Source: Aliarcobacter cryaerophilus ATCC 43158 (lineage in GTDB: Bacteria > Campylobacterota > Campylobacteria > Campylobacterales > Arcobacteraceae). Taken from it: a stretch of DNA of 64,000 nucleotides. The stretch is from contig NZ_CP032823.1 in the NCBI RefSeq assembly GCF_003660105.1, forward strand, positions 930,001 to 994,000. Reading direction: 5' to 3'. A program made the position numbers and the translations under genes. Below are positions 1,636-58,603 of the stretch, piece after piece; within the stretch, counting starts at the first letter, position 1, and each line of letters begins with the position of its first letter. Below the pieces are notes generated by a model that made no database searches, was not told the origin of the DNA, and saw only the letters and a list, made by a program, of their open reading frames with translations.

Positions 1636-1641
1636 TCTTTT

Positions 1642-1767: not shown

Positions 1768-1815
1768 TGCCAAAAAAGATACAATTTACCTTAATTTATT
1801 ATATTTTGGAGACAT

Positions 1816-2313
1816 ATGAAGAAAATTTTACCAATATTAACAGTTGTTTTAATAATTGCAATAATTGTAATAATATTTATATCTATGGCGAAAGAGCAAA
1901 AAATGGTAGTAATAAAAGATGGTAATATTTCTCAAACTCCACTTGAAATAGTTTTAGGAAAATATCAAGATAGTGATTGTGGAATGATTATTCAAGATTT
2001 AACTTTTGCTTCTCAAGTAATTTCAAAAGATGGAAAAACTTGGTTTTTTCATGACCATGGTGGAATGGCAAATTGGTTAAATAGTAAAGATTTTAAAAAT
2101 AGTGTTAAAATTTTTGTTAAGAGTAAAGACACAAATAGGTACATAGATGGAAAAGCTGCTTTTTACAGTACAAATGAAATAACTCCAATGAGATATGGTT
2201 TTGGAGCTTATGAAAATAATCAAGATGGTTTTATAGATTTTGAAGAGATGAGTTTGAGAGTTTTAAGAAAACAGACTTTGGCAAATCCGCAACATAAAGA
2301 ACATAAACATTAA
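1816..2313 (+). CDS. NosL-domain membrane-anchored copper-binding protein
   Basis: A 165-residue protein with one N-terminal membrane segment (about residues 4-24) and a periplasmic domain. The domain contains CGMIIQDLTFASQ, DGKTWFFHDHGGM and TPMRYGFGAYE, which together match the NosL pattern (Cys-Gly-Met metal site; the TPM-YGF block near the end). The C-terminus is His-rich (PQHKEHKH). NosL proteins bind Cu(I) and assist copper-site assembly in nitrous oxide reductase, but no nos gene is visible here. The stop overlaps the start of the next gene by one base, so the pair is probably co-translated and may deliver copper to another enzyme. TGGAG precedes the ATG. Confidence 0.7.
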   Translation: MKKILPILTVVLIIAIIVIIFISMAKEQKMVVIKDGNISQTPLEIVLGKYQDSDCGMIIQDLTFASQVISKDGKTWFFHDHGGMANWLNSKDFKNSVKIFVKSKDTNRYIDGKAAFYSTNEITPMRYGFGAYENNQDGFIDFEEMSLRVLRKQTLANPQHKEHKH

Positions 2314-3023: not shown

Positions 3024-3057
3024 AATTTAGAAAAAAAATTTAAAAAGGAGGAAAAAA

Positions 3058-3228
3058 ATGAAAAGATATTTTAGCTTTTTTGGTATTTTAATGGCAACAT
3101 CAAATGCAAAACTTAATATGTTTTATGCAAAATTTGATAACTATTTAGAAAAACTACCAGACATAAAAAATAGTTTAATAAAAACTGAACTAAAACCAAT
3201 CAAACAATATTCAACAAATAATTTATAA
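3058..3228 (+). CDS. Small ORF, 56 aa, possible exported peptide
   Basis: Not similar to anything I recognise. The ATG follows a near-perfect Shine-Dalgarno AAGGAGG (3046-3052) at 5-nt spacing, the strongest site I noticed in the window. The product starts MKRYFSFFGILMATSNA, which looks like a short signal peptide (KR, hydrophobic stretch, SNA), leaving a mature peptide of about 39 residues rich in Lys, Asn and Leu. It lies 34 bp after the DsbD_2-like gene and 18 bp before the TonB-dependent receptor, so it is probably in the same transcript. Alternatively the ORF could act as a translated leader controlling the receptor. Confidence 0.55.
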   Translation: MKRYFSFFGILMATSNAKLNMFYAKFDNYLEKLPDIKNSLIKTELKPIKQYSTNNL

Positions 3229-3246
3229 ATAAATATAGGAAAAAAA

Positions 3247-5106
3247 ATGCAAAAAATAAATATAAGCTTAGTTGCAAGCTTTTTAATAGCAACAAATTTA
3301 TACTCACAACAAACAAACTCTTTGGATGAAATTACTATTTCAAGTGCTACAAAATCAGAAGAAAAATTAAAAAATGTTACAGCCAATGTCGATGTTATAA
3401 CAGCAGAAGATATTGAGTCAAGAAAGTTTAAAACAGTTATCGAGGCTTTAAATAGTTTATCAGGTGTTAGTATTTCAAGCAATGGTGGAATTGGAACTTT
3501 AAGTCAAGTTTACTTAAGAGGAATGAAAAGTGAAAATACTTTAGTTTTAATCGATGGAATAAGATATAACAATCCTTATAATGGTTCAGTTGATTTTGCA
3601 CATTTAATGATAAATGATATTGAAAGAATAGAAGTTCTAAAAGGTGCTCAAAGTAGTGTTTGGGGTGCAGATGCTAGTGCTGGAGTTATAAATATTATTA
3701 CAAAATCAGCAAAAGATGGAACTTTTGGAAATGCAAGCGCTGAATATGGAAGATATGACTCAAAAATATCAAAGGCTACAATTTCTCATAAAAATAAAAA
3801 TTTTGATGCAAAACTTAGTGCAACTAGAGTTGATACAGATGGATTTTCAGCCATTTCACCAAAAAGTAATGAAGCAAAAAAATATGAAGATGATGGATAT
3901 AAAAATACAACAGTAGATTTAAAATTAGGATACAACTTTGATGATAATAATAGATTAAGTGCTAGTTATGGAATAGTTGATGCAAAAACAAAGTTTGATG
4001 ATATGCTTTCAGATGCTAGTTATAACCCTGATATCATAGCTTCTGCAAACTCAAAAGCTGAAACAAAAACTAGAAATAGTATAGCAAGTTTAAATTATGA
4101 AAATAAAAATATTTTTGCAACTACAAATATTTATACAAACTATTCAAGATTTAAAAATGAAACTAAAACTGAGGTTGGATTTAATGATTCTAAAAATAAA
4201 ACAGATATAAAAGAATATGGTATTAAATCAACTATTCCATACTTAGAAGACTCTTCGTCACTTACAGTTGGAGCAGAGTATAAAGACTTTGAAGATAAAG
4301 AAGATATCAATAGAAAATATAATAGTAAAGCTATTTATTTTACAAATACAAATAAGTTTTTTAGCGATAAAACAATACTTTCACAGGCTTTAAGATATGA
4401 CAAATACAGTGATTTTGATAATAAAACAACAGGAAAAATAGGAATTAAACAATATATTATAGATGAGTTAAATATTAGTTCAAACTATGGTACAGGATAT
4501 AATACGCCTTCTTTTATACAATTATATAAAACATCTTGGGGTGGAAATCCAGACTTAAATCCTGAAAAAACAAAATCTTATGATGTTGGGTTTGAATACA
4601 AAGGTTTTTCTGTAACGTACTTTAATACAAAAGTTAATAATTTAATGGTATCAAATGCAAGTACATCTTGGAAATATAAAAATATCGAAGGAGATAGTAA
4701 ATTTAAGGGAACTGAAATTGCTTATAAAAACTCTATAATTGAAGATGTTTTTATAAATTTAAACTATACAAATCTTAGCGCAAAAGATTCAAAAGATAAA
4801 AAACTTCAAAATAGACCTAGCAATAAGTTTAATTTTGGAGTTGATTATTATGGTTTAAAAGATTTTCACTTTAATATAAATGGTGAATATATAGGAACAA
4901 GACAGAGTGTTAATTTTGATTATAATAAACCAGATGTAAAAACTGGAAACTATACAGTTTGGAATGCTGTTGTTGATTATGATATTAGCAAAAACTTCTC
5001 TACTTATTTAAAGCTTGATAATATTTTAAATAAAGATTATCAAATAGTTGATGGCTATGCAACAAGCCAAAGAGCAGCATTTGTTGGATTGAAGGCTAGT
5101 TTCTAA
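3247..5106 (+). CDS. TonB-dependent outer membrane receptor, BtuB-like
   Basis: A 619-residue protein with a signal peptide (about residues 1-20), a TonB-box-like segment LDEITISSAT (about 26-35), and a plug domain (about 45-150) with the typical blocks YLRGMKSENTLVLIDGIR and IERIEVLKGAQSSVWGADAS then AGVINIITK. A beta-barrel follows and ends in a terminal Phe (VGLKASF). Length and plug resemble the cobalamin receptor BtuB (about 614 residues). The next three genes encode a BtuF/BtuD/BtuC-like ABC importer, which supports corrinoid uptake. Haem or siderophore transport is the main alternative. No TonB/ExbBD genes lie in the window, so energy must come from elsewhere in the genome. Confidence 0.75.
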   Translation: MQKINISLVASFLIATNLYSQQTNSLDEITISSATKSEEKLKNVTANVDVITAEDIESRKFKTVIEALNSLSGVSISSNGGIGTLSQVYLRGMKSENTLVLIDGIRYNNPYNGSVDFAHLMINDIERIEVLKGAQSSVWGADASAGVINIITKSAKDGTFGNASAEYGRYDSKISKATISHKNKNFDAKLSATRVDTDGFSAISPKSNEAKKYEDDGYKNTTVDLKLGYNFDDNNRLSASYGIVDAKTKFDDMLSDASYNPDIIASANSKAETKTRNSIASLNYENKNIFATTNIYTNYSRFKNETKTEVGFNDSKNKTDIKEYGIKSTIPYLEDSSSLTVGAEYKDFEDKEDINRKYNSKAIYFTNTNKFFSDKTILSQALRYDKYSDFDNKTTGKIGIKQYIIDELNISSNYGTGYNTPSFIQLYKTSWGGNPDLNPEKTKSYDVGFEYKGFSVTYFNTKVNNLMVSNASTSWKYKNIEGDSKFKGTEIAYKNSIIEDVFINLNYTNLSAKDSKDKKLQNRPSNKFNFGVDYYGLKDFHFNINGEYIGTRQSVNFDYNKPDVKTGNYTVWNAVVDYDISKNFSTYLKLDNILNKDYQIVDGYATSQRAAFVGLKASF

Positions 5107-5107
5107 G

Positions 5108-5941
5108 ATGAAAAAAGTACTATATTTTCTACTTTGTTTAAATATTTTAGATGCAAATGAGAGAATTATCACTTTAAGTCCAGCAATAAATGAGATAGCT
5201 TTCGCCTTAGGTTTAGGCAATAAAATTATTGCAAATACAGAGTTTTGTGATTTTCCTATTGAGTCAAAAAATATTCAAAAAGTTGGAGGATATGGAAGTG
5301 TTAGTTTAGAAAAGGTTGTGAACTTAAATCCAACTATTATATTAAATCAAGATTATGATAAAAAATTAAACCAAAGTTTAAAAGATTTAAATTTTAAAAC
5401 TTTGGTTTATAAAACAAATAGTTTAGAAGATATTAAGTTTACAATAAAAGATTTAGGTGAAGTTTTTAATAAAAAGGAAGAAGCAAAAAATCTAAATAAT
5501 CAGATAGAAAATAGTTTAGAATCTTTGAAAAATATTATAGAAAATAAAAAAATTCTTATAGTAATAAGTCCACAAAACACGCTATCTAATCAGATTTTTG
5601 TAGCAGGAAATTTTATATATTTTGAAGATATTATAAAATCTAGTAATAATGTTAATGCTTATCAATCTAGTTTAAAATCACAACCTTCAATAAATAGTGA
5701 AAAATTAATCACTTTAAATCCAGATATTATTATTTTATTGGCTCCATTTTTAGAAAATGATGAAAAATCTAAAGAAAAATATATAAAAATGTGGGAAAAA
5801 CTACCAATAAATGCAAGTAAAAAGAAAAATGTCTATATAATAGATAAATTATATTCAGGTATTCCAAGTCATAGAATAAAATATTTTATAGATGATTTTA
5901 AAGGTATTTTAGAAGATGTTAGAACTAAAAAATTACAGTAA
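5108..5941 (+). CDS. Periplasmic corrinoid/metal-chelate binding protein, BtuF-like
   Basis: A 277-residue periplasmic binding protein. A short signal-like N-terminus (about 16 residues) leads straight into RIITLSPAINEIAFALGLG, typical of BtuF and related cluster A-II binding proteins. The bilobal fold is linked by a long helix around residues 115-150, and NPDIIIL lies in the second lobe. No lipobox Cys is seen. It starts 1 bp after the receptor stop and overlaps the ATPase gene by 26 bp. BtuF delivers vitamin B12 to BtuCD; the family also includes ferri-siderophore and haem binders, so the ligand is an inference from context. Confidence 0.7.
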   Translation: MKKVLYFLLCLNILDANERIITLSPAINEIAFALGLGNKIIANTEFCDFPIESKNIQKVGGYGSVSLEKVVNLNPTIILNQDYDKKLNQSLKDLNFKTLVYKTNSLEDIKFTIKDLGEVFNKKEEAKNLNNQIENSLESLKNIIENKKILIVISPQNTLSNQIFVAGNFIYFEDIIKSSNNVNAYQSSLKSQPSINSEKLITLNPDIIILLAPFLENDEKSKEKYIKMWEKLPINASKKKNVYIIDKLYSGIPSHRIKYFIDDFKGILEDVRTKKLQ

Positions 5942-6617
5942 TTTTATTTTAAAAGATATTTCTTTTATTTTAGAAAATAGTCAAAATCTACTTATTTTAG
6001 GGGAAAATGGAGCAGGTAAATCTACTTTGGCAAAAGTTTTATCTAATCTTTTACCATCTTCTAATCTTTTTTTTGAAAATAAAAATACAAGAGATTTAAG
6101 TTCATATCAAAGAGCAAAATCTATAAATTATATTCCTAGTCGTTTTGAGATATTTGATGAATATTTGACTGTTTTTGAGTATTTAAAATTGTCAATTATA
6201 GAAGAAAAAAAAATAGAAGATATAGAAAAAATTATATCTTTACTAAAACTTGAGAATCTAAAATTTAACTCTTGTGTAAATTTAAGTTCAGGAGAGCAGC
6301 AACTTTTGCTTCTTGCTGGTGCTTTACTACACAATGCAAATATTACAATTTTTGATGAATTAACTGCAAATTTAGATTTAAATAGAGTAAAAGATGTTTT
6401 TGATATTTTAAATTCAAGCTTACTATCTCAAAAAATAGTAATTACACATAACCTTGATTTTGCTTATGCTTTAAAAGATTTCAAAGTACTATTTTTGAAA
6501 AAAGGTTCTTTGAAATTTTTTGGTTCTCATAGTGAATTTTTTATACAAGAGAATTTAAATAGATTTTATGGTGAAAATTTAAAACTTTTAGATTCGCATT
6601 TGGTACTTGATTTATGA
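5916..6617 (+). CDS. ABC transporter ATPase, BtuD/FecE-like
   Basis: A 233-residue nucleotide-binding subunit. Walker A is GENGAGKST near residue 30, the signature is LSSGEQQ near 123, Walker B is ITIFDEL near 146, the D-loop is ANLD, and the H-loop is VITHN near 180. All catalytic elements are intact. The start overlaps the binding-protein gene by 26 bp and the end overlaps the permease by 4 bp, so the three are translationally coupled. It powers import of the ligand captured by the BtuF-like protein. The N-terminus is slightly short for the family, because the first beta strand is minimal. Confidence 0.8.
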   Translation: MLELKNYSNFILKDISFILENSQNLLILGENGAGKSTLAKVLSNLLPSSNLFFENKNTRDLSSYQRAKSINYIPSRFEIFDEYLTVFEYLKLSIIEEKKIEDIEKIISLLKLENLKFNSCVNLSSGEQQLLLLAGALLHNANITIFDELTANLDLNRVKDVFDILNSSLLSQKIVITHNLDFAYALKDFKVLFLKKGSLKFFGSHSEFFIQENLNRFYGENLKLLDSHLVLDL

Positions 6618-7561
6618 AAAAAATATTATATATTTTTGCTATTTTGATTATATTTATATCTCCTTTTTTAGGAGAAATTACTATAAATATTAAAGATATT
6701 TTCTATTTGAATGATAGTTTATCTACTGTTTTCTGGGATTTAAGAGTTCCTAGAGTTATTTTGGCATTTTTTGTAGGTTCAATTTTGGCTTTGGGTGGTT
6801 TAATTTTTCAAATAGTTTTTAAAAATGAGTTAATAACTCCATATACTTTAGGAATTGCAAGTGGAACAACACTGTTTTCAGCTATTTCTATAGTTTTTTT
6901 TCCATTGATACCACTATTTTTCTCTAGTATTTTTGGATCACTTGTTACTATTTTAATTCTATTTATAATTTCTAAAAAAATAAACTCAAAAAGGCTTATA
7001 AGCTCTACAAATTCAATGCTTTTAATAGGAATTGCACTATCGTATTTTTATAGTTCAGCACTTATGCTTATATTTTTTATTAGTAATCTTCAAGAAAACT
7101 ACTCAATAGTAAGATTTACTTTGGGAAGTCTTGATACAGTTGGATTTCTTGCTCCTTTTGTTGTATCTTTTGTGGCATTTTGTCTTCTGCTTTTTATTTA
7201 TAAAATGAAAAATAGTATAAATTTACTTCTTATTTCAAATGATATGGCTTTTTTAAAAGGTTTAAATGTAAACAAAATTATTTTGACTTTACTTTTGTTT
7301 ATTACTATTTGTGTTGGAATTTGTATTAGTTTTACAGGACCTATTGGTTTTGTAGGGCTTGTAATTCCTCATATTGTAAAACTAATCTATAAGCAAAGCG
7401 CAACTAAGCTATTTTTTCCAACACTATTTTTTGGTGGAACTTTTTTAGTTTTTTGTGATTTGATTTCAAGAGTTTTACCAACCGCTTCAAGCTTACCAAT
7501 AGGTGTTGTAACTGCTTTTATTGGAGCTCCGTTTTTTGTATATCTTTTAATACGTAAATAA
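6614..7561 (+). CDS. FecCD/BtuC-family ABC permease
   Basis: A 315-residue membrane protein with about nine hydrophobic helices. Family blocks are WDLRVPRVILAFFVGSILALGG, LTPYTLGIASGT (here LITPYTLGIASGT) and the coupling-region block FTGPIGFVGLVIPHIVK, which are standard for the FecCD family (BtuC, FhuB, FepD). The closing block is LPTASSLPIGVVTAFIGAPFFVYLL. It forms the inner membrane channel with the upstream ATPase. It is the last gene of the uptake operon and converges on sixA with 10 bp between the genes. Confidence 0.8.
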   Translation: MKKILYIFAILIIFISPFLGEITINIKDIFYLNDSLSTVFWDLRVPRVILAFFVGSILALGGLIFQIVFKNELITPYTLGIASGTTLFSAISIVFFPLIPLFFSSIFGSLVTILILFIISKKINSKRLISSTNSMLLIGIALSYFYSSALMLIFFISNLQENYSIVRFTLGSLDTVGFLAPFVVSFVAFCLLLFIYKMKNSINLLLISNDMAFLKGLNVNKIILTLLLFITICVGICISFTGPIGFVGLVIPHIVKLIYKQSATKLFFPTLFFGGTFLVFCDLISRVLPTASSLPIGVVTAFIGAPFFVYLLIRK

Positions 7562-7571
7562 AACTTTTTAA

Positions 7572-8069
7572 TTAAGATTTATTAAACATTTTTGGATATA
7601 TAAAAAACTCTAAAATTCCAATTTTTTCTTTAATGTTTTCCCACTTTTTTATATCAAAATTTATTTTTAATACACCACTTGTAGGAATATTCTCTTCAAA
7701 GCTTCCAAGTAAAAAAGCTACTAAATCATTAAGTCCAGGATTATGTCCAAATAAAAAAATAGTTTTATATCTATCATCTATATTTTTTATAACTTTTAAA
7801 AGATTTTCAAATGGTGCTTCATAAATCGACTCTTCAAAGATAATTTCATTTTTAAAATCAAACTCTTTTAGAAAAAAATCCAAAGTCTGTTTTGTTCTTT
7901 TTGAAGGTGAAGAGATTATTAAATCAGGAGTTAATCCTTTTTGTTTTAGGATTTTTGCGATAAAAGGTGCATTTTTTTCACCTCTTTTATTTAAAGGTCT
8001 ATCAAAATCTTCTAAAAATGGATTATCCCAACTAGATTTTGAATGTCTTATTAAAATCAACTCTTTCAT
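7572..8069 (-). CDS. sixA: SixA-like phosphohistidine phosphatase (histidine phosphatase family)
   Basis: A 165-residue protein of the branch 1 histidine phosphatase superfamily, in the compact form typical of SixA. The catalytic motif is RHS at residues 8-10 (LILIRHSKSSW), a second active-site Arg lies in SSPSKRT (R58), and the second catalytic His is H109 in FGHNPGLND. SixA removes phosphate from phosphohistidine in phosphorelay or PTS proteins; the target here is unknown. Its start is 83 bp from the start of lapG, divergently. Confidence 0.8.
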   Translation of the reverse strand: MKELILIRHSKSSWDNPFLEDFDRPLNKRGEKNAPFIAKILKQKGLTPDLIISSPSKRTKQTLDFFLKEFDFKNEIIFEESIYEAPFENLLKVIKNIDDRYKTIFLFGHNPGLNDLVAFLLGSFEENIPTSGVLKINFDIKKWENIKEKIGILEFFIYPKMFNKS

Positions 8070-8138
8070 ATAAAATCCTTCAATTTTTTTCTGATTTTAG
8101 CATATATTTTAGAAAAGAAAAAAATATATTATTTTTTT

Positions 8139-8146
8139 GATATAAT
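8139..8146 (+). promoter_or_regulatory. Extended -10 promoter of lapG, predicting a leaderless mRNA
   Basis: TGATATAAT ends at 8146, and the ATG begins at 8153, exactly where transcription would start (seventh base after the -10). There is no Shine-Dalgarno sequence before the ATG, consistent with a leaderless or near-leaderless mRNA. Confidence 0.55.
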
Positions 8147-8152
8147 AAATAC

Positions 8153-8752
8153 ATGAAAATTTTAATTAGTCTATTTTTTCTACTGTTTTTTACTCTAAAT
8201 GCTGATTTTGTTGATACTTCTTTGATTGTAAAAGTTGAAGAAAAGTATGGAAAATTTGCAAAAAATAGATTTATTGCATTAAATACTATGTTGGAAAAAA
8301 GCAAAAGCTCTGATTTAAGAACAAAGCTAGAAAAGGTAAATGATTTTTTCAATGGTATAAAATATGCGAGCGATCAAACTGTTTATGGCAATAGTGATTA
8401 TTGGGCAAATCCTTATGAATTTTTAGCAAAAGACAAAGGAGACTGTGAAGATTATGCAATTGCAAAATATCTCGCACTTGAGTATTTAGGAGTTCCAACT
8501 TCTAAAATGTTTTTATCTTATGTTAGAGTTAAATCTTCAAATGAAGCACATATGGTTTTGACATATTTTGAAACACCAAGTTCTGAGCCATTAGTTTTAG
8601 ATAATATAAGAAAAACTATACAACCAGCTTCAAAACGAGATGATTTAATACCAGTTTTCAACTTTAATCCAAATATTTTAAAAGGTGAAAAAACAGCTGC
8701 TCACAGAAAGTGGGATACATTAATTAAAGATTATAAAGGAAAAAAAATATGA
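8153..8752 (+). CDS. lapG: LapG-type periplasmic cysteine protease (transglutaminase-like, BTLCP family)
   Basis: A 199-residue protein with a signal peptide (about residues 1-17, ending TLNA). The bacterial transglutaminase-like cysteine proteinase fold is clear: NDFFNGIKYASD, then the nucleophile in KGDCEDYAIAKY (C98), then H133 in EAHMVLTY and D150 in LVLDNI, giving the expected Cys-His-Asp triad. In known systems LapG cleaves the N-terminal region of a giant surface adhesin after a di-alanine, releasing cells from surfaces unless LapD sequesters it. It overlaps lapD by 4 bp (ATGA). No adhesin substrate is encoded in this window. Confidence 0.88.
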   Translation: MKILISLFFLLFFTLNADFVDTSLIVKVEEKYGKFAKNRFIALNTMLEKSKSSDLRTKLEKVNDFFNGIKYASDQTVYGNSDYWANPYEFLAKDKGDCEDYAIAKYLALEYLGVPTSKMFLSYVRVKSSNEAHMVLTYFETPSSEPLVLDNIRKTIQPASKRDDLIPVFNFNPNILKGEKTAAHRKWDTLIKDYKGKKI

Positions 8753-10623
8753 GTTTATTAAAGCAAGTTTCTATCGTTCTTGGTTTTATCTTTTTGATAC
8801 TTTTTGTATCTATTATTGGTCTATCTTTTAATATTATAAAAGATTCATCTGCAAAATCTTTGTATGAAAATGTACAAAATAGTGTTACAAGTACTAGTTT
8901 ATCAATAACAAATGCAGGAGTTGATGAAGGAACTATAAAAACAGTTATGAATGCAGCTTTTGATAATGGAAATTATGAAAAAATTGTGTTTAAAAATATT
9001 AATGATGAGATAGTTTATGAATTAAAAAAAGATTTAATAATAAGTGATGAGATACCGCATTGGTTTATCAATATTGTAGATACTGGTGAAATTTCAGCAC
9101 TAGCAAGTATTTCAGAAGGATGGAATGTTTTAGGAGTTTTAGAAATTTATGCCGATAGAGCTATTTACTATAATCAAACATATAGTATGTTTATAAAACT
9201 TTTACAATCTTTGGCGTTTAGTTTTGTTGTTTTGATGATTATTTTATCTATATTTTTTAATTTTATTTTAAAGCCATTAAGAACAATAAATAATCAAGCA
9301 AAAGCCGTAATGAATAATGAGTTTATACTTTCAACTGAAAAACCTTTTACAGATGAGTTTAAAACTCTAACAACTAGTATAAATAGCATGATTTCTAAAT
9401 TTGAGAAAATGTTTCAAAATACAAATGAAGTATTAAAGACAAATAAAGAGCTTCTTTATTTTGATGAAACAACAAAAATAAATAATAGAAAGTATTTTAT
9501 ATTAAAAGCGAATGAGTATTTAGATAAAGATAGCTCAAATAACAAAGGTTTTATAGTATCTATTGCAATAAAGCTTGATGTAATAAACAAAACTTATGGA
9601 TTTATAAAAACAAATGAGATTTTATTTAAATTAGCTTCAAAGATAAAAAATAGTTTTGATGGAGATCATGATATTGTTGTTAGAATGAATGGCTCAGAGT
9701 TTTTAGCACTTGTTCCAAATGCTAAAGAAGATGATATAAAAAACTCTTTAGAAAAACTAATAATTGATTTAAAAGCTATAGTAGAGCTTGAAGATAATAT
9801 TTTTATAGGTCTTTGTAAATATGAAAATGAAGAGAGTTTAAGAACTCTATTTACTAAGATAGATTATACACTTTCTCAAGCAAAAGTAAATAGTGATAAA
9901 GATTATTTTTATGTAACTCATATGGAAAATATTAAAACAAAAGAAGAGTGGATAAATATATTAAATGTCTCTTTAAAAGAGGAGTTTTTTAGACTTATTC
10001 ATAGAGATATTGTTGATATTAATTCAAAAGAAGAGTATTTGAAAACTATTAGTTTTGAGCTTGATTTTAAAGGAGAGACTATTAGATATGGTGAATTTAT
10101 AGCTTCTGTTTTAGAACAAAATAGATTAGATGAAGTATATTTGCATATAATTGAAAAAGTTTTCAAACAAAATAAAGCAAATGAGTTTTTATCAATACAA
10201 CTTCCTACTTTATTTATAGAAAAATTAAGTAGTTATGCAAATCTAAAAGAGTTATTAAATAAATATAAACATATCTCAAAAAATATTATTTTTGAAATTG
10301 AAGAAGAAGCATTTAATAAAAATTTCAATAGTACTTTGATGTATATTTCACTATTTAAAGAGTTTGGTTTTAACTTTGCTATATTTAATTTTATTGCAAA
10401 TAGTGATGATTATAACTATTTAAAAGAGTTAAGACCACTTTATATTAAAGCTTCTAAATTCTTCTTGCTTGAATCAAGACAGAGCTTAAATATGTTAAAA
10501 ATACTTACTCAGTCTTTAGATATTAAAATTGTTGCTACAAGTGTTGATGAAATTGAAGAGATAAAAACTTTAGAAGAGATAGGAATAAATGCAATTTCTG
10601 GTGCTGTTATGTCAAAATTATAG
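8749..10623 (+). CDS. lapD: LapD-type c-di-GMP receptor with degenerate GGDEF and EAL domains
   Basis: A 624-residue inner membrane protein: TM1 (about 9-30), a periplasmic LapD/MoxY N-terminal domain (about 31-145) with PHWF and GWNVLGVLEIY, TM2 (about 150-172), HAMP (about 173-225), GGDEF-like (about 235-390) and EAL-like (about 400-620). The GGDEF signature is replaced by NGSEF and no RxxD I-site is seen. The EAL motif reads FEL (SFELDFKGE). Both enzymes are therefore predicted to be dead, as in known LapD proteins, which bind c-di-GMP through the EAL domain and hold LapG in the periplasm. The 4-bp overlap with lapG supports the pairing. Confidence 0.88.
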   Translation: MSLLKQVSIVLGFIFLILFVSIIGLSFNIIKDSSAKSLYENVQNSVTSTSLSITNAGVDEGTIKTVMNAAFDNGNYEKIVFKNINDEIVYELKKDLIISDEIPHWFINIVDTGEISALASISEGWNVLGVLEIYADRAIYYNQTYSMFIKLLQSLAFSFVVLMIILSIFFNFILKPLRTINNQAKAVMNNEFILSTEKPFTDEFKTLTTSINSMISKFEKMFQNTNEVLKTNKELLYFDETTKINNRKYFILKANEYLDKDSSNNKGFIVSIAIKLDVINKTYGFIKTNEILFKLASKIKNSFDGDHDIVVRMNGSEFLALVPNAKEDDIKNSLEKLIIDLKAIVELEDNIFIGLCKYENEESLRTLFTKIDYTLSQAKVNSDKDYFYVTHMENIKTKEEWINILNVSLKEEFFRLIHRDIVDINSKEEYLKTISFELDFKGETIRYGEFIASVLEQNRLDEVYLHIIEKVFKQNKANEFLSIQLPTLFIEKLSSYANLKELLNKYKHISKNIIFEIEEEAFNKNFNSTLMYISLFKEFGFNFAIFNFIANSDDYNYLKELRPLYIKASKFFLLESRQSLNMLKILTQSLDIKIVATSVDEIEEIKTLEEIGINAISGAVMSKL

Positions 10624-10636
10624 AAACTACTATTTG

Positions 10637-10669
10637 ACCAAAAAAAGGCTTTTTTTAGCTTTTTTTGGT
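10637..10669 (+). terminator. Probable hairpin terminator after lapD
   Basis: An inverted repeat 14 bp after the lapD stop: ACCAAAAAAAGGC (10637-10649) pairs with GCTTTTTTTGGT (10658-10669). The stem is mostly A-U with a few G-C pairs and there is no good U tract after it, so termination efficiency is uncertain. Confidence 0.5.
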
Positions 10670-10708
10670 TAATATCTATTTCTACTTATATCAAATGAAA
10701 GATAAATT

Positions 10709-11743
10709 ATGATTGTAAAAATAGACTTAACAAATGATAATTCATACGAAATTTATATCGAAAAATTAAAAGCTTTGAGCTTTGATAGAAAAGTTGTTGT
10801 TGTTACCAATCCTACGGTTGCTGGTTTTCATTTAGAGTATTTAAAATCGAAATTAACAGCAAAAGAGCTATTTGTTTGCACAATCAAAGATGGTGAAGAG
10901 TATAAAAATATGCAAACTTTAGAAGATATTTTAAGTTCATGCTTTGAAGCAAAACTTGATAGAAAATCTCTTCTTATTGCCTTTGGTGGCGGTGTAATTG
11001 GAGATATGACTGGTTTTGCTGCATCAATTTATCAAAGAGGAATTGATTTTATTCAAATTCCAACTACACTTTTATCACAAGTAGATGCAAGTGTTGGTGG
11101 AAAAACAGGAATAAATAACAAATATGGAAAAAACCTAGTAGGAACTTTTCATCAGCCAAAAGCTGTTTATATTGATTCATACTTTTTAAAAACTCTTCCA
11201 AAAAGAGAGTTAGGAGCTGGAATTTCTGAAATTATAAAAATGGCTGTTTGTTTCAATAAAGATTTTTTTAGTTGGCTTGAAAATAATGATTTAAGAGATG
11301 AAAAAAATATTGATGTAGCTATACAAAAATCAGTACAAACAAAAGCTTATGTGGTAAGTGTTGATGAGAAAGAGCAAGGATTAAGAGCTGCATTAAATTA
11401 TGGGCACACTTTTGGACATGTTATAGAAAATATTACAAATTATAAAACATATCTTCATGGTGAAGCTGTTGGAATTGGAATGTGTATGGCAAATTCTCTA
11501 GCTGTTAAACTTGGTTTTATGAGTAAGGAAGATGAAAAAAGAGTAGAAAATTTACTTAAAAAATATGATATTCCAACAACTTTTAAAATAAGTGATGTTG
11601 AAGATTTTTATGAGCATTTTTTCTTGGACAAAAAGTCTAGTAATAGTAAGATTAAATTTATTTTACCTCTTGGAATTGGTGATTGTAAAATTACAGATGA
11701 GATAAAAAAAGATGATGTTATTGAAATTTTAAAAGGATTTTAA
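10709..11743 (+). CDS. aroB: 3-dehydroquinate synthase
   Basis: A 344-residue enzyme of the shikimate pathway that converts DAHP to 3-dehydroquinate using NAD and a divalent metal in the cytoplasm. Conserved blocks are [20 protein letters not shown], the [20 protein letters not shown] block, [12 protein letters not shown] (metal-binding Glu), [12 protein letters not shown] and HGEAVGIGM (metal-binding His residues). Length is standard. It begins a run of same-strand genes; mscS starts at the very next base after the stop, so the two are likely co-transcribed. The order aroB-mscS-mtaB-ftsH-like is, from memory, shared with Helicobacter pylori. Confidence 0.95.
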
Positions 11744-13426
11744 TTGTTTAAAAAGATATTTATTTTAATACTTTTTCTAGTTGGTACTACAGTTTTAAAT
11801 GCAAATCAAGAGAACACAAATGATACAAAAATAGAAAAAGTAGATCAAAAAAAAGGTTCTTCAAAAAATAGTCAAAAAAAAGATGAAAATATTTTAGATA
11901 TTGAAAATATGGTTGAAGCAAATATCTTATTGGAGAAAATAAATAAGATAGAGTCTGGATTTAAAGATAATATTCTTTTGAAAAGATACTCAAATTATCT
12001 ATCGTATAGTAAAATATCAGCTGATTTAGAGCAACTAAAAGATAGTTTAAAGAGAAAAAACCATTTAAGTGATGAGCTTGAGTATCAACTTTTAAATAAA
12101 ATTAGAGTAAAAGAGAATGAACTAGAGTTGATAAGTGAATATAAAGGTTCACCAATAGGAAGTTTGATAAATCCACCAGAAATTGAAATAGTTGAAAAAA
12201 TTACAAATCCTTTTGGAATAATTAATGCTTTATCAAGTATAAAAAAGATGGAAGATAGTAAACAACAATTTACTAGTTTAGAAGCACAATTAGAAGTTTT
12301 ATCAAAAAATATTCAAGAAGAGCTTGATAGCTATAGAAATCTATATGTTTTAGAGCCAAAAGATGAGTATAAAGAAAAAATAGTATTTTTAGATAAACAA
12401 AAAAGAGATTTTGAGATTGTTTTAGACATTGTAAGTACAACGCAAGAGGTTTATGGAAGAAAGATTGAGCAGGTTATTTTAGAGATAAAAAATCAAATAT
12501 CTCAACAAGTACAAAAAATACTTTTGATATTTGCCATTATTGTAATTATGCTTATAGTTTCATTTTTAGTTAAATTAACACTAAAAAGATATTTTTCTCA
12601 GAATGAAAATTATTATATGGTAAATAAAATTATAAATTTCACATTGGCTTTTTTAGTTTTAATGCTTCTCCTTTTCTCTTATATTGATAATGTTTCATAT
12701 CTTGTAACAATCTTAGGATTTGCATCTGCTGGTATTGCTATTGCTTTAAAAGATTGGTTTATGTCTATTTTTGGTTGGTTGGTTATTGTAACTTCTGGTT
12801 TTATTCAAGTTGGAGATAGAATTCGTGTTACAAAAGGAGATGTAGAAACTGTTGGAGATGTTTTAGATATTTCTTTATTTAAAATTACTATAAAAGAAGA
12901 TGTTACACTGGTTTCATATATGAAAAATAGAAGAGCTGGAAGAATTTTCTTTGTACCAAATAACTATATTTTTTCTGAACTTATTGCAAATTATAGCCAT
13001 AGTGAATTAAAAACAGTTTGGGATGGAATTGACATAACTTTAACTTTTGATTCAAATTTTAAAAAAGCTCAAAAGATTATTAGAGACATCTTAAAACACT
13101 ATTCAAAAGGTTATAGTGATATTACAAGAAAACAGCTTTCAAAAATGAGAAATAAATATCAACTTAGAGCAACTGGAGTTGAACCACGAGTATTTACTCT
13201 AATAGAACCATATGGAATGGTTATTTCTGGTTGGTATCTTACAAACTCTTTTGCAGCTCTTGTTTTAAGAAGTACTATTTGTGCTGAAATACTTGAAGCT
13301 TTAATGAAAGAGGATGATATACATATAGCTTATCCAACTCAACAAATAAATATAAATAAAACTTCAAATCCTTATGGTCCAGCATCAAAAATGCCAAAAG
13401 AAGAGTTTGAAGTACATGATAATTAG
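11744..13426 (+). CDS. MscS-family mechanosensitive ion channel
   Basis: A 560-residue protein with a signal peptide (about residues 1-21, ending LNANQ), a long charged coiled-coil-like periplasmic region (about 25-255), then membrane helices (about 258-280, 294-312 and 318-350). The pore helix is the Ala/Gly-rich TILGFASAGIAIALKDW, followed by a cytoplasmic beta domain with IQVGDRIRV and VPNNYIFSE, both typical of MscS. Such channels release osmolytes during hypo-osmotic shock. The start is TTG, directly abutting the aroB stop, and this start gives a well-formed signal peptide. The extended periplasmic N-terminus makes it closer to MscK/YbdG-type variants than to minimal MscS. Confidence 0.85.
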   Translation: MFKKIFILILFLVGTTVLNANQENTNDTKIEKVDQKKGSSKNSQKKDENILDIENMVEANILLEKINKIESGFKDNILLKRYSNYLSYSKISADLEQLKDSLKRKNHLSDELEYQLLNKIRVKENELELISEYKGSPIGSLINPPEIEIVEKITNPFGIINALSSIKKMEDSKQQFTSLEAQLEVLSKNIQEELDSYRNLYVLEPKDEYKEKIVFLDKQKRDFEIVLDIVSTTQEVYGRKIEQVILEIKNQISQQVQKILLIFAIIVIMLIVSFLVKLTLKRYFSQNENYYMVNKIINFTLAFLVLMLLLFSYIDNVSYLVTILGFASAGIAIALKDWFMSIFGWLVIVTSGFIQVGDRIRVTKGDVETVGDVLDISLFKITIKEDVTLVSYMKNRRAGRIFFVPNNYIFSELIANYSHSELKTVWDGIDITLTFDSNFKKAQKIIRDILKHYSKGYSDITRKQLSKMRNKYQLRATGVEPRVFTLIEPYGMVISGWYLTNSFAALVLRSTICAEILEALMKEDDIHIAYPTQQININKTSNPYGPASKMPKEEFEVHDN

Positions 13427-13438
13427 GATAAATATTTT

Positions 13439-14716
13439 ATGAATTTTAGTGAACATAGACCAAAGGTTTTTTTTAAGACTTTTGGTTGTAGAACAAATAT
13501 TTTTGATACACAAGTAATGATTAGTAACCTAAAAGATTTTGATATAACAAATAACGAAAAAGAAGCAAATGTTGTTATAATAAACTCTTGTACAGTTACA
13601 AATAGTGCAGATACAACAGCTAGAAGCTATATAAATGGTTTAAAAAAACTTGAAAACTCTCCAAAAGTAATATTTACAGGTTGTGGAACAAGAACAAAAG
13701 GTGAGAAACTTTTTGGAGAAAATAAAATTGATGGACTTTTTGGTTCAAGTGAAAAAGAGAATATTAATGAACTTTTAAAATTAGATGATAAATTCTATAA
13801 ACTTGGTGATTTAAATAGTCTTGATACAACTGTTGTTGAAGAGTTTGTTGGAAAAAGTAGGGCTTTTATAAAAATACAAGAAGGGTGTGATTTTAGATGT
13901 TCATATTGTATTATCCCTCATGTAAGAGGTGACGCTAGAAGTTATGAAGAGAGTGTTATTTTAAATCAAGTGCAAACTTTAGCAAATAATGGTTTTAGTG
14001 AGTTTATTTTAACAGGTACAAATGTAGGAAGCTATGGTAAAAAAATGCATACTTCATTAGCAAAACTTCTAAAAAAAATGGCACTTATAAAAGGTGTTAA
14101 GCGAATAAGAATGGGAAGTATAGAGCCTATTCAAATTGATGATGAGTTTAAAGAGCTTATAAATGAGCCATTTATGGCAAAACATCTTCATATAGCACTT
14201 CAACACACTTCAAAAGATATGTTAAAAATTATGAATAGACGAAATAAAGTTTTAAGTGATTTAGAACTTTTTGAATTTTTAAGTTCAAATGGATATGCTT
14301 TGGGAACTGATTTTATAGTTGGTCATCCAGGAGAAACGAAAGAACTTTGGAGTGAGGCTATGAAAAATTTAAATAATTTTCCACTAACTCATATTCATGC
14401 TTTTACATATTCAAAAAGAGATGGAACACCAAGTGCTTCTATGAAAAATATTGTAAAAGGCGATATCGCAAAAGATAGATATATTGAACTTGTAGAGATA
14501 ATTAAGCAAAAGAATTATGAGTTTAGACAAAATATAAAGAAAAATAAAGTTAAACTAGAAGTTTTAGTTGAGCAAGAAAAAAATGGTAAGTATTTAGGAT
14601 TTGATCAGTTTTTTAATCAAGTTGAGATAATTTCAAATGAAGATTTGGTATCAGATTGGTTAAATTTAGAAGATTACAAAGTGGAGTTTAATAAAAATGA
14701 AGCAAGATTTAAATAA
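13439..14716 (+). CDS. mtaB: tRNA t6A37 methylthiotransferase MtaB
   Basis: A 425-residue radical-SAM methylthiotransferase. The N-terminal UPF0004 domain has the three Cys of the auxiliary cluster (FGCRTN, NSCTVTN, FTGCGTR). The radical SAM core has GCDFRCSYCIIPHVRG (CxxxCxxC), followed by a C-terminal TRAM-like segment. FGCRTN and HVRG favour the MtaB branch over MiaB or RimO. MtaB converts N6-threonylcarbamoyladenosine at position 37 of ANN-decoding tRNAs to ms2t6A. It overlaps the following AAA+ gene by 20 bp. Confidence 0.88.
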   Translation: MNFSEHRPKVFFKTFGCRTNIFDTQVMISNLKDFDITNNEKEANVVIINSCTVTNSADTTARSYINGLKKLENSPKVIFTGCGTRTKGEKLFGENKIDGLFGSSEKENINELLKLDDKFYKLGDLNSLDTTVVEEFVGKSRAFIKIQEGCDFRCSYCIIPHVRGDARSYEESVILNQVQTLANNGFSEFILTGTNVGSYGKKMHTSLAKLLKKMALIKGVKRIRMGSIEPIQIDDEFKELINEPFMAKHLHIALQHTSKDMLKIMNRRNKVLSDLELFEFLSSNGYALGTDFIVGHPGETKELWSEAMKNLNNFPLTHIHAFTYSKRDGTPSASMKNIVKGDIAKDRYIELVEIIKQKNYEFRQNIKKNKVKLEVLVEQEKNGKYLGFDQFFNQVEIISNEDLVSDWLNLEDYKVEFNKNEARFK

Positions 14717-21647: not shown

Positions 21648-21964
21648 AAAGGTAGATAGACAATAGCTTGATTTCAAGAGGAAAGTCCGTGCTGCAGTGA
21701 AGCAAGGTTCCATCTAACGGATGGCTAGAGTAATCTAAGGGATAGTGCAACAGAAAGTATACAGCCAATTTTTTGGTGATGGTGAAACGGTAGAGTAAGA
21801 GCCTACCAGTGTTTTGAGTAATCTTAACAGCTTTGTAAACCCAACTTGTAGTAAGAAGACATGGTATTTAGCTTCACATTTTTCGTCTTCGCAGGAGTAT
21901 TAAAGTGATTTAATACCTAGATAAATTATTGTCAAATACAAAACACGGCTTATAATCTACCTTT
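21648..21964 (+). ncRNA. rnpB: RNase P RNA (class A)
   Basis: About 317 nt of non-coding sequence with the conserved RNase P blocks in order: GAGGAAAGTCCGTGC near 21679, AGGGATAGTGCAACAGAAAG near 21739, GGTGATGGTGAAACGGTAGA then GTAAGAGCCTACCAG near 21775-21811, TAAACCC near 21837, and a 3' ACACGGCTTATA near 21943. The ends pair to form helix P1: AAAGGTAGAT (21648-21657) with ATCTACCTTT (21955-21964). It is the catalytic subunit that matures tRNA 5' ends. It lies between lolA and a chemoreceptor gene with its own -10 box. Confidence 0.95.
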
Positions 21965-22054
21965 TTAAAATCTAATAAAAATCTATATAAAATTACAAAC
22001 AAACTTATAATTCTTTTGGTAAAATGATTTTCAATAAACACAAAAGGGTTTTTT

Positions 22055-37821: not shown

Positions 37822-38874
37822 TTAAAAAATATCTGTAGTCTTTCTTAGTCTTTCTTTATCAAAGTGAGTATAAATCCTGCTTGTATTTATATCTGCATGA
37901 CCTAAAGCTTCTTGAACAAGTATTAAATCATGGTGTTTTGAGTAAAGTAAAGTTGCAAAGCTATGACGTAGCATATGTGCTCCATTTTTCTCTTTTCTAA
38001 TACCAACACTTGTTAAAATACTTTCAACAATACGACTAATATAAGCTTGAGTTAATCGTTCACCTTTTTGATTACAAACCAAAATATCACTGTTGCAAAC
38101 TCTTTGAGTTAGCCAGTTTTGTAGTTCATGTTCAATAATATACTTTTTAATCATAACAACTCTTGGTTTATTTCCTTTTCCACGAATTTGAAGCATATAA
38201 ACATCTTTTTCATTAAAAATATCTTTTAATTTGAGATTTAACATCTCACTAACTCTAATTCCAGTATATATTATTATTTTTATTATAAGTCGATTTCTAT
38301 AAGCTGTATTATCAGAAAATTCAAAATTATTAATAGCAGATAAAAATCTATCAATCTCCTCTTTATTCATAAAAGAGGGGAGTTTTGAACCACTTTTTCC
38401 ACTTAATCCACCCCAATTTTTTAACTCTATTTTAAATAAATATGAGCTTCCATCTTGATTTTCATTTTGTTTATCTATGTACGAAAATAAAGATAGTAGG
38501 GCGATACGATGGTTTTTTTTAGAAGCATCTGATAGTGAACTAGTTTGGCTAGCTAAAAAATCACTTAACAACTCTTCATCAATCTCTTTAAGAGAAGCTA
38601 AACCTAAATTATTTGTATAGTTATATAGTTTTAAAAGAGGATTAAAATATGTATTTATTCCATTTAAGCCAATATTTCTAGCTTCTTTTACTAAAATATC
38701 AAGCTCTTCAATTGATTTTGTACCTTTTACTAAACTTTGAATAATAAAAGCTAGTTTATCTTTATTTGATACTTGTCGATTTGATAGACTTGTTAATTTA
38801 TATCTTATAAATCTCTCTATCCAAAAAAGCATACTATCTTTAAAACTGTTCTTAAAATCTAATTCATATCTCAT
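37822..38874 (-). CDS. xerH: XerH tyrosine recombinase for chromosome dimer resolution
   Basis: A 350-residue tyrosine recombinase. The N-terminal SAM-like core-binding domain spans about 85-160, and the catalytic domain about 170-345 with TGIRVSEML (Arg), HMLRHSFATLLY (HxLRH), ALGHADINTS (His) and RIYTHF (nucleophile Tyr). Length and the roughly 80-residue N-terminal extension match XerH of Helicobacter/Campylobacter rather than 300-residue XerC/D. It acts alone on a dif site at the terminus under FtsK control. A dif-like palindrome lies 61 bp upstream of its start, the arrangement known in this phylum. Confidence 0.88.
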   Translation of the reverse strand: MRYELDFKNSFKDSMLFWIERFIRYKLTSLSNRQVSNKDKLAFIIQSLVKGTKSIEELDILVKEARNIGLNGINTYFNPLLKLYNYTNNLGLASLKEIDEELLSDFLASQTSSLSDASKKNHRIALLSLFSYIDKQNENQDGSSYLFKIELKNWGGLSGKSGSKLPSFMNKEEIDRFLSAINNFEFSDNTAYRNRLIIKIIIYTGIRVSEMLNLKLKDIFNEKDVYMLQIRGKGNKPRVVMIKKYIIEHELQNWLTQRVCNSDILVCNQKGERLTQAYISRIVESILTSVGIRKEKNGAHMLRHSFATLLYSKHHDLILVQEALGHADINTSRIYTHFDKERLRKTTDIF

Positions 38875-38934
38875 ATAGAACCTTCTAAATATTAGGATTA
38901 ATTTATATGAGAGTATAGCAAAAGTGATATTAAT

Positions 38935-38967
38935 ATTAGTTTGAAAATTATAGTTTTCAATACTAAT
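38935..38967. other. dif: dif (difH-like) chromosome dimer resolution site
   Basis: A 33-bp imperfect palindrome just upstream of xerH. The left arm is ATTAGTTTGAAAA (38935-38947), the centre is TTATAG, and the right arm is TTTTCAATACTAAT (38954-38967). The reverse complement of the right arm is ATTAGTATTGAAAA, nearly identical to the left. Arm length, 6-bp centre and location fit a XerH target. Genes to the right are almost all minus and those to the left mostly plus, as expected where replication forks meet. Confidence 0.8.
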
Positions 38968-38987
38968 ATATTTTTGATTTACTCAAA

Positions 38988-39017
38988 ATAGAACATCTCT
39001 TAAAGTTAATGTTCTAT
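38988..39017 (-). terminator. Possible terminator of the che operon
   Basis: ATAGAACAT (38988-38996) pairs with ATGTTCTAT (39009-39017) around a 12-nt loop, 11 bp after the cheB stop. On the minus strand it is followed by TTTT. The hairpin is weak. Confidence 0.4.
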
Positions 39018-39027
39018 ATTAAATAAT

Positions 39028-50877: not shown

Positions 50878-51050
50878 ATCCAAGTAGCCGATAACCATAA
50901 AGGTGGCCCTAAAAGCCAAGTATATATACAAGAGAAATACTTTAGGAGCAAAAACCAAAGGAGATGCTGCACACAGTATAAACTACAAATTTGTATAAAA
51001 TAAAATATTATCGGACCCGCAAGTAATGGAAATCCCGTACTACTTAGAAT
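50878..51050 (-). ncRNA. ssrS: 6S RNA (epsilonproteobacterial 'purD motif' RNA)
   Basis: A structured non-coding segment of about 170 nt between hemD and purD on the purD strand. The closing helix pairs UCUAAGUAG at the 5' end (51048-51040) with CUACUUGGA at the 3' end (50887-50879). An inner helix pairs CCGAUAA (51014-51008) with UUAUCGG (50894-50888), leaving an asymmetric internal loop with GCGGGU, reminiscent of the GCGGG...CCGAUAUUU segment of E. coli 6S. A TAAAAT -10 (51061-51056) lies just upstream. From memory, a conserved RNA before purD in this group was later recognised as 6S RNA, which sequesters RNA polymerase. Confidence 0.7.
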
Positions 51051-56350: not shown

Positions 56351-58603
56351 TTATTGAACTAAAATTTCTCTATTTCCTCGAGCATCAACTTCGCTTAGAA
56401 CACCTGTTTTCTCAAGTTGTTCTATAATCGTTGCAGCTCTGTTATACCCTATTTTTAATCTTCTTTGAAGATATGAGATAGATGTTTTTTTATCTGTTAT
56501 TATCACATCTTTTGCATCTTCATACAAATCATCCAAAACTATATCTTCATCACTAATATTTCTAGCACCTTTTGAACCACTAGAACTTGAACCTAGATTT
56601 TTATCTTTTATAAAATTCATATCATATTCAACTTCTCTTTGATCTTTTAAAAACTCTACAACTTTTTCGATTTCAGTTTCAGTACTCCAAGGAGCATGAA
56701 TTCGTACAAGTCCAGGCATTCCTGGAGGAGTAAATAACATATCTCCTCTTCCTAATAAAGATTCAGCACCCATAGAATCAAGTATAATTTTAGAATCTAT
56801 TTTTTGCCCTACTTTATAAGATAATCTGCTTGGCAAATTTGCTTTAATAAGTCCCGTTACGACATCAACGCTTGGTCTTTGAGTTGCTACTATTAGGTGA
56901 ATCCCACTAGCTCTTGCCATTTGAGCAAGTCTTGCGATTGAGTATTCAACATCTTTACCGCTTGTCATCATTAAATCGGCTAACTCATCAATTACTACAA
57001 CAATATAAGGCATTGTAGGAAGCCCTTCTTTTTGTGCTTTTTCGTTAAAATTTTCAATATTTTTTGTTTTTGTTTTTGCCATTAATGTATAACGTCTTTC
57101 CATCTCACCAACCATATTTGCTAGTGCATTAATTGCATCAACAGCTTTCGTAATAACAGGAGTTAAAAGATGTGGAATATCATTGTACATAGAAAACTCA
57201 AGCATTTTTGGATCAATCATTACTAATCTCAAATTATCTGGTGAATTTTTATATAGTAAAGATAGAATCATTGAGTTAATTCCAACTGATTTTCCACTTC
57301 CAGTTGTTCCAGCAATTAGTAAATGTGGAAGTTTTTTAAGATCTGTTACAAAAGGTTTTCCAACAATATCTTTTCCTAAAATCATAGTTAATGGAGACTT
57401 TGAATTTTGAAAAATCTCACTATCTAGCATCTCTTTTAGATAAATTGTTTGTGTATCTTCATTTGGAACTTCAATTCCAACTACATCTTTCCCTGGAATT
57501 GGCGCTTGAATTCTTATTGTTTGGGCTTTTAAAGCCATTGCTAAGTCATCTTGTAAGCTTAAGATTTTTGAAACTTTTACATTTGGAGCTGGTTTAAACT
57601 CAAAAGTTGTAACAACTGGTCCTGTGTAAGTTCTTACAACATCTCCATCAATTTTAAACATAGCAAGTTTATCAAGTAAATCTGCTATTTTTTTATCTAT
57701 AAATGCTTCGTTTACTTTTGTTTTATTCTCTTTTGGTGCTTCTTGAAAGAAGTTTGTAGGTGGAAGCATAAAATCTTTTGGTTTTTCAGTCTTTCCAAAC
57801 TCTAACTCACTTAGAAGTTTTGCATTTTCTTCAAGTTCATCAACAATTAAATTATTATTGCTTTGATTGTTATTTGTAAGTTCACTAAAAATATCTTCCT
57901 CTTCTTCTTCTTTGTAGATTAGTTCTTCTTCTGAAATTTTTTGATTTTCAAAAATTACTTTTTCTTCTTTTGGTTTTGGAACAGATTTTGGTTTTTCTTG
58001 ATATGTTTTTTGTTCAACTCTTTGTTCAATTTTGTAATTATTTACTTTTTGCTCATTTATTTTTTTTAGGCTGTTTTGTTTTAATTTTATTCTACCTTTT
58101 AGCTTTTTTAAATCATCGATTGTTATATTTAAAGTTTCAAAAAGAATTAAAATACAGATACTAAAACCTATCAAAACAAAAATATAAAGTCCCGCTTGTC
58201 CAATAAAAGGTGTAAATGCATCTACTAAAATATTACCTATTTCTCCTCTTTCATAAGGATTTTCAAGCAAAAGAGTTTGAAAAATCAAAGATATAAATAA
58301 AAATAGAAATACTACCGATATATTTAGGATTAAATCTCTATAATCAAGTCCTTTTTTAAAATTTATAAGATACAAAGGGTAGATTAGTAAAAGCAAATAA
58401 ATATAAGATAAATATGAAAAATACTTAAATGAGAAGTTAGCAAAACTAGCTCCAACATTTCCTACAACATCCTTTGTACTAATTAAAGTTGTAAATTGAA
58501 AATATAAAATAATAAATAAAATAATTAATGAAACGACTTTCTTAGCTATAATAAATCCTTTTATTTTAGTAATTTTGATATTTTTCCCTGAAGCTTGAGC
58601 CAA
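56351..58603 (-). CDS. ftsK: DNA translocase FtsK
   Basis: Up to 750 residues: four membrane helices in the first 180 residues, a charged Lys/Glu/Gln-rich linker (about 185-320), the alpha/beta motor (about 330-665; Walker A AGTTGSGKSVG, Walker B IVVVIDELADLM) and a C-terminal winged-helix gamma domain (about 685-750) that reads polar sequences and activates Xer. It segregates termini and resolves dimers with XerH at dif. The start is uncertain. TTG at 58603 lies inside lpxD without a ribosome binding site, while AAAAGGA near 58557 points to a start near 58547-58552, where only ATT or ATA is available. Confidence 0.92.
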   Translation of the reverse strand: MAQASGKNIKITKIKGFIIAKKVVSLIILFIILYFQFTTLISTKDVVGNVGASFANFSFKYFSYLSYIYLLLLIYPLYLINFKKGLDYRDLILNISVVFLFLFISLIFQTLLLENPYERGEIGNILVDAFTPFIGQAGLYIFVLIGFSICILILFETLNITIDDLKKLKGRIKLKQNSLKKINEQKVNNYKIEQRVEQKTYQEKPKSVPKPKEEKVIFENQKISEEELIYKEEEEEDIFSELTNNNQSNNNLIVDELEENAKLLSELEFGKTEKPKDFMLPPTNFFQEAPKENKTKVNEAFIDKKIADLLDKLAMFKIDGDVVRTYTGPVVTTFEFKPAPNVKVSKILSLQDDLAMALKAQTIRIQAPIPGKDVVGIEVPNEDTQTIYLKEMLDSEIFQNSKSPLTMILGKDIVGKPFVTDLKKLPHLLIAGTTGSGKSVGINSMILSLLYKNSPDNLRLVMIDPKMLEFSMYNDIPHLLTPVITKAVDAINALANMVGEMERRYTLMAKTKTKNIENFNEKAQKEGLPTMPYIVVVIDELADLMMTSGKDVEYSIARLAQMARASGIHLIVATQRPSVDVVTGLIKANLPSRLSYKVGQKIDSKIILDSMGAESLLGRGDMLFTPPGMPGLVRIHAPWSTETEIEKVVEFLKDQREVEYDMNFIKDKNLGSSSSGSKGARNISDEDIVLDDLYEDAKDVIITDKKTSISYLQRRLKIGYNRAATIIEQLEKTGVLSEVDARGNREILVQ

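What the first reader, a model, noticed from the sequence alone, without database searches (positions are those of the whole stretch)
38935..38967. Candidate dif site next to xerH marks the replication terminus
Seen: a 33-bp palindrome with 13- and 14-bp near-identical arms around TTATAG, 61 bp upstream of a XerH-type recombinase. Known: in Campylobacterota one recombinase (XerH) acts at a difH site that lies close to its gene. Seen: from 39.0 to 61.7 kb all genes but one tiny ORF are on the minus strand, while the left half is mostly plus, as expected where the replichores meet. ftsK is 17 kb away. This gives a concrete candidate for an unlabelled functional site.
Basis: partly seen in the sequence, partly recalled or inferred. 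Interest (0 to 1): 0.75.

Follow-up and report, generated by a model that had tools for sequence, protein, structure and literature searches.

The report
Chromosome dimer-resolution site beside its recombinase
The palindrome is a standard difH site, the spot opposite the replication origin where the XerH enzyme separates fused chromosomes in this group of bacteria; it was predicted in close relatives in 2009, so it is real but expected.

Summary
The observation and its reading hold. The 33-bp quasi-palindrome is at 38935-38967, 61 bp from the start of xerH. On the minus strand its core, TTAGTATTGAAAACTATAATTTTCAAA, equals the published Arcobacter butzleri difH. The neighbouring ORF is XerH (best solved match H. 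pylori XerH, 2e-107; all six catalytic residues present). The core is unique in this genome, and 79 of 104 genomes of the family carry it (reversed-pattern controls 0). In 30 closed, dnaA-referenced chromosomes it lies at 0.475-0.563 of the circle; here 0.483. GC skew is weak but consistent: its peak is 3-22 kb away. The palindrome itself is near chance; the conserved sequence carries the identification.

Verdict: ordinary difH, a new member of a known kind. Around it are less ordinary things: (1) an extended -10 element of xerH sits at a fixed distance from difH in Arcobacteraceae and Helicobacter, so difH overlaps the xerH promoter; (2) a second arm class (TTGGAAA/TTTCCAA) goes with His74 in XerH and predicted the site type in held-out genomes; (3) Zot/secretin filamentous prophages and other small phage-like elements lie at difH in relatives, as CTXphi does at dif. 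No recombination was tested; these are sequence inferences.

The parts
38935..38967 (-). difH region: 33-bp quasi-palindrome, ATTAGTATTGAAAACTATAATTTTCAAACTAAT on the minus strand
   Evidence: identical core to A. butzleri RM4018 and A. nitrofigilis difH (PMC2731167, PMC3325230)
38954..38964 (-). left arm of difH, AGTATTGAAAA (11 bp, XerH half-site by analogy with H. pylori)
   Evidence: arm lengths from PMC5241119; sequence
38948..38953 (-). central region CTATAA (strand-exchange region by analogy)
   Evidence: the variable positions of difH are here, at the outer edges and at arm position 5/18
38938..38947 (-). right arm of difH, TTTTCAAACT (10 bp)
37822..38874 (-). xerH, single-type Xer tyrosine recombinase, 350 aa; R207 K233 H300 R303 H326 Y335
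   Evidence: Pfam Phage_int_SAM_6 + Phage_integrase; H. pylori XerH 5jjv/5jk0 E 2e-107; catalytic residues
38912..38920 (-). extended -10 element of the predicted xerH promoter, TGCTATACT; hexamer TATACT 38912-38917, 21 nt from the 23-mer difH core
   Evidence: spacing conserved in relatives; promoter itself inferred
56351..58603 (-). ftsK with alpha, motor and gamma domains (activator of XerH recombination in H. pylori)
   Evidence: Pfam; FtsK requirement in H. pylori from PMC3325230
39028..40101 (-). cheB, neighbour on the other side of difH
   Evidence: Pfam

Best explanation
The site is difH, the chromosomal target of the single recombinase XerH. When homologous recombination fuses the two sister chromosomes into a dimer, each copy of difH in the terminus binds two XerH monomers, one per arm. 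FtsK at the septum brings the two sites together and activates XerH, which exchanges strands across the 6-bp centre and returns two monomers. The site sits next to xerH as one module and, inferred here, overlaps the xerH promoter. Shown here by computation: sequence identity, uniqueness, conservation, terminus position, the intact recombinase and FtsK. Inferred from H. pylori: binding, cleavage, FtsK dependence.
For: Core identical to the published A. butzleri difH, which lies 66 bp from its xerH. Unique exact match in the genome; the only other place within 3 mismatches is 0.7 Mb away and looks like chance. 79/104 family genomes have it, almost always once, controls 0. 30/30 closed chromosomes place it at 0.475-0.563 from dnaA, mean 0.513. 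Sampled GC skew peaks in the same region. XerH is a clear homologue of the solved H. pylori enzyme with all catalytic residues. Arms, centre spacing and the symmetric A/T-to-G/C change in both arms fit one protein binding both arms. The core stays intact where it is separated from xerH by 33-35 kb, so its main role is not local to that gene. Small phage-like elements lie between or beside difH-like sites in relatives, as expected of an active recombination site.
Against: No recombination, binding or dimer assay exists for this organism. GC skew here is noisy and follows gene orientation. 25 of 104 family genomes lack a match at this stringency; for some a more divergent or displaced site was then found, for others not. 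Palindromicity alone is near chance.
Confidence: 0.96

Rival explanations
1. The palindrome is only an operator (for XerH or another regulator) of the xerH promoter and not a recombination site.
For: An extended -10 element toward xerH lies 22-23 nt from the proximal arm in most of 43 of 96 relatives (21-25 nt in all 43), against 3 on the distal side and about 1 in shuffles.
Against: The core stays intact in genomes where it lies 33-35 kb from xerH; its close homologue has been shown to recombine in H. pylori; it keeps a terminus position.
Confidence: 0.02
2. difH doubles as an operator: XerH bound at difH blocks or adjusts xerH transcription, so recombinase level is tied to site occupancy. 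This is an addition to the best explanation, not an alternative to it.
For: Near-fixed spacing to the -10 whatever the orientation of difH and whatever the leader length, in Arcobacteraceae and in Helicobacter. The 23-mer core would cover about -33 to -56 of the promoter, overlapping the RNA polymerase footprint.
Against: No transcription data. Many type-B modules have 20-28 nt between arm and start codon and no such -10. Genomes with displaced difH keep xerH.
Confidence: 0.45
3. The palindrome is a terminator or a chance AT-rich inverted repeat between cheB and xerH.
For: Shuffles give about one equally good palindrome per window.
Against: No terminator-like structure in this stretch; most of the 23 core positions are invariant or nearly so across 98 distinct loci (those loci were chosen for a match within 2 mismatches); single copy opposite dnaA.
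Confidence: 0.005
4. The site is an attachment scar of a mobile element rather than the host's dif.
For: Elements do use difH in relatives.
Against: No element here: cheB and xerH flank it directly; no second copy in chromosome or second replicon; no phage record matches the region.
Confidence: 0.01

Closest known systems
XerH/difH of Helicobacter pylori and Campylobacter (single-recombinase Xer system)
   Same: XerH homologue over the full length, 11 + 6 + 10 bp site layout, TGAAAAC...TTTTCAAA arms, terminus location, FtsK with gamma domain
   Different: outer left arm AGTATTG instead of AGTTATG of H. pylori; centre CTATAA; no experimental test here
difH of Arcobacter butzleri RM4018 and A. 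nitrofigilis (predicted 2009 and 2012)
   Same: identical core, 66 bp from xerH in A. butzleri
   Different: orientation relative to xerH is the reverse of A. butzleri
XerS/difSL of Streptococcus and Lactococcus
   Same: single recombinase linked to its site, similar palindromic site
   Different: XerS and XerH are not close phylogenetically according to PMC2731167
XerCD/dif of most bacteria and the CTXphi-type elements that exploit it
   Same: role and terminus location; elements integrate at the site
   Different: two recombinases and unlike arms; in this genome the other XerH-like hits are distant (25-32% identity) and not at the site

Membership tests
difH/XerH system | arms matching consensus TGAAAAC---A-TTTTCAAA | tested here: met
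difH/XerH system | single copy in the chromosome | tested here: met
difH/XerH system | near the terminus by GC skew or opposite the origin | tested here: met
   0.483 of the circle from dnaA; skew peak 3-22 kb away
difH/XerH system | intergenic, low G+C | tested here: met
   between cheB and xerH
difH/XerH system | XerH-type recombinase of about 350-363 aa with catalytic R K H R H Y | tested here: met
difH/XerH system | no dedicated XerC/XerD pair | tested here: inconclusive
   other tyrosine recombinases exist, at 25-32% identity; not classified further
difH/XerH system | XerH binds and recombines the site, FtsK dependent | not testable with these tools
   shown for H. pylori (PMC3325230, PMC5241119)
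difSL/XerS system | XerS-type recombinase | tested here: inconclusive
   best solved relative is XerH; no XerS among the solved structures hit, but no direct comparison with an XerS sequence was made

The most novel reading that the evidence does not exclude
difH has two jobs in Arcobacteraceae and Helicobacter: recombination site and, placed at the -35 position of the xerH promoter, an autoregulatory operator. In addition, the xerH-difH pair behaves as an exchangeable module with at least two specificities, set by XerH residues 74/75 (Asn-Thr for TTGAAAA arms, His-Val/Leu for TTGGAAA arms).
Probability: 0.4. Interest if true: 0.55.

Novelty: new member of a known kind. Interest (0 to 1): 0.35.

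Why it matters
It gives an unannotated functional site a firm address and places the terminus region of this chromosome. The comparative work makes three things directly testable: whether XerH regulates itself through difH, whether one or two residues (74/75) set the arm specificity of a single Xer recombinase, and whether filamentous phages use XerH as CTXphi uses XerCD. In the papers I could search I found no report of these.

Tried and rejected
Ungapped palindrome statistics understate the site because of its one-base bulge; redone with a bulge. A conserved orientation of difH relative to xerH or to dnaA was considered and rejected: both orientations occur, with at least 2-3 changes within the genus. 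A viral-contig search with the capsid candidate of the G033 element found nothing. The consensus promoter scan does not report the extended -10 because the promoter has no -35 match. tRNA and Rfam scans of the window gave nothing at the site. No structure prediction was run, since XerH has a solved homologue.

Full report
OBSERVATION. The strand pattern and FtsK at 56351-58603 are right, except that the run of minus-strand genes begins at about 36.0 kb. As a bare palindrome it is not remarkable in DNA of about 73% A+T: with one bulge allowed it ties for the best in the window, but Markov-shuffled windows give about one as good (13 or more paired) each, and without a bulge there are 13-23 equals.

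IDENTITY. On the minus strand it reads ATTAGTATTGAAAACTATAATTTTCAAACTAAT. Carnoy and Roten (PMC2731167) list TTAATTAGTATTGAAAACTATAATTTTCAAATAAAATATA as difH of A. butzleri RM4018, 66 bp from xerH, and Debowski et al. (PMC3325230) add A. nitrofigilis with the same core. The ORF is XerH: Pfam Phage_int_SAM_6 and Phage_integrase, H. pylori XerH 5jjv at 2e-107, catalytic R207, K233, H300, R303, H326, Y335, corresponding to R213, K239, H309, R312, H335, Y344 of the solved enzyme (PMC5241119).

POSITION AND UNIQUENESS. The window is C1:930001-994000 of a 2,006,909-bp chromosome with dnaA at base 304. The 23-mer core is unique in the genome; the next best place has 3 mismatches. The site is at 968.94 kb, 0.483 of the circle. 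Across the family 79 of 104 genomes have the site with at most one mismatch, nearly always once, against 0 for the reversed pattern. In 30 closed chromosomes, each referenced to its own dnaA, the site lies at 0.475-0.563, mean 0.513. GC skew is noisy: sampled cumulative skew peaks at 950 kb, the dense local curve at 947.2 kb with a shoulder at 966 kb.

CONSERVATION AND ORIENTATION. The site lies upstream of xerH in most relatives, median 78 bp. Its orientation relative to xerH is not conserved: the window and most of its genus have one, A. butzleri and others the reverse, with at least 2-3 changes on the XerH tree; in L018, L019 and L143 the flip is seen with the same neighbouring gene end upstream. 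Orientation relative to dnaA is mixed too. This suits a site at the meeting point of two mirror-image replichores, where orientation need not matter (inference).

PROMOTER OVERLAP. Upstream of xerH an extended -10 (TGnTAnnnT) lies 21-25 nt, mostly 22-23 nt, from the end of the proximal arm in 43 of 96 distinct loci, against 3 on the distal side and about 1 expected from shuffles. It recurs in Aliarcobacter, other Arcobacteraceae and Helicobacter, with differing leader lengths and for both orientations of difH. In the window it is TGCTATACT at 38912-38920. XerH on difH would cover roughly -33 to -56 and so compete with, or contact, RNA polymerase. Autoregulation is therefore plausible but unproven. 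Relatedness among loci means 43 is not 43 independent cases. In genomes where difH is displaced from xerH by 33-35 kb the core is intact, so recombination is the primary role.

TWO SPECIFICITIES. Of 98 distinct loci, 66 have A..T at positions 5 and 18 of the 23-mer and 31 have G..C; one, beside an element, is mixed. Both arms change together, as expected if one protein binds both. The G..C class follows one XerH clade (the single exception, L189, carries both modules side by side). Only four XerH positions separate the classes under a strict cut: 70, 74, 75 and 146; 70-75 lie in the N-terminal helical bundle that makes base contacts in H. pylori XerH (aa 12-88, PMC5241119). His74 occurs in every G..C-class protein and in no A..T-class protein of that alignment (L084, L189, L167 and L024 were left out of it). 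For genomes not used to find this, where no site lay next to xerH, residue 74 matched the class of the site found elsewhere in the genome in each case where a clear site was found (L022, L023, L031, L061, L071, L074, L082, L087 as A..T; L073 as G..C). The clade arose once, so the correlation is one evolutionary event plus consistency, not proof. The G..C module occurs in several genera that also hold the A..T module, and both xerH classes together in G002 and G090, which suggests exchange of the gene-site pair as a unit.

ELEMENTS AT difH. In relatives, small elements lie at difH. G029 (L203): two direct difH-like sites 10.07 kb apart enclose Zot, secretin and a rolling-circle Rep, a filamentous-phage gene set. 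L209: Rep, secretin and Zot genes beside difH and xerH. L211, a metagenomic viral contig, carries a difH site with Zot and secretin. G033 (L167): a 9.3-kb element between an intact and a half-degenerate site, with a packaging-ATPase-like gene. G011 (L202) is similar, with inverted sites. The parallel with CTXphi at dif is close; the 2017 review lists such elements for Vibrio, Neisseria and Enterobacter, all XerCD hosts (PMC5357621), and a search for XerH with filamentous phage gave five papers, none with such a report in its title or abstract. None of these elements is in the window.

VERDICT. difH, a new member of a known kind, confidence 0.96. Interest is moderate because the site itself was predictable from the 2009 paper; the side findings are worth following.

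Noticed in passing
L203 (G029) 3843-13932; L209 813-11630; L211: Filamentous-phage gene sets (Zot, secretin, in two of them rolling-circle Rep) sit at or between difH sites, suggesting inoviruses that use host XerH/difH as CTXphi uses XerCD/dif.
   Followed up: partly
L167 (G033) 1876-11193: A 9.3-kb element between an intact difH and a hybrid site 21 bp before xerH; packaging-ATPase-like gene (phrog_2666) and a 315-aa phrog_28223 protein, possibly a tailless phage.
   Followed up: partly
L202 (G011) 330-12356; L212: An element between inverted difH-like sites; L212 shows the same gene sizes head to head on both sides of a central difH.
   Followed up: no
L201 (G002); L189 (G090): Genomes with two xerH genes of different specificity class; in L189 the two modules are interleaved, with difH_B between divergent xerH genes and difH_A beyond.
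   Followed up: partly
XerH residues 70, 74, 75 (window 37822-38874): His74 (with Val/Leu75) marks XerH proteins whose difH arms read TTGGAAA instead of TTGAAAA; it matched the site class in held-out genomes.
   Followed up: partly
window 21648-21968 (+) and 50878-50986 (-): RNase P RNA (class A) and a purD RNA motif, by Rfam.
   Followed up: no
window 38979-39026: An 18-nt inverted repeat (AGAACAT...ATGTTCT) just after cheB, possibly its terminator; no T run.
   Followed up: no
G006 and other relatives: Several genomes have many DnaA-like ATPase hits of equal score scattered over the chromosome (eight in G006), probably IstB-type insertion sequence helpers.
   Followed up: no
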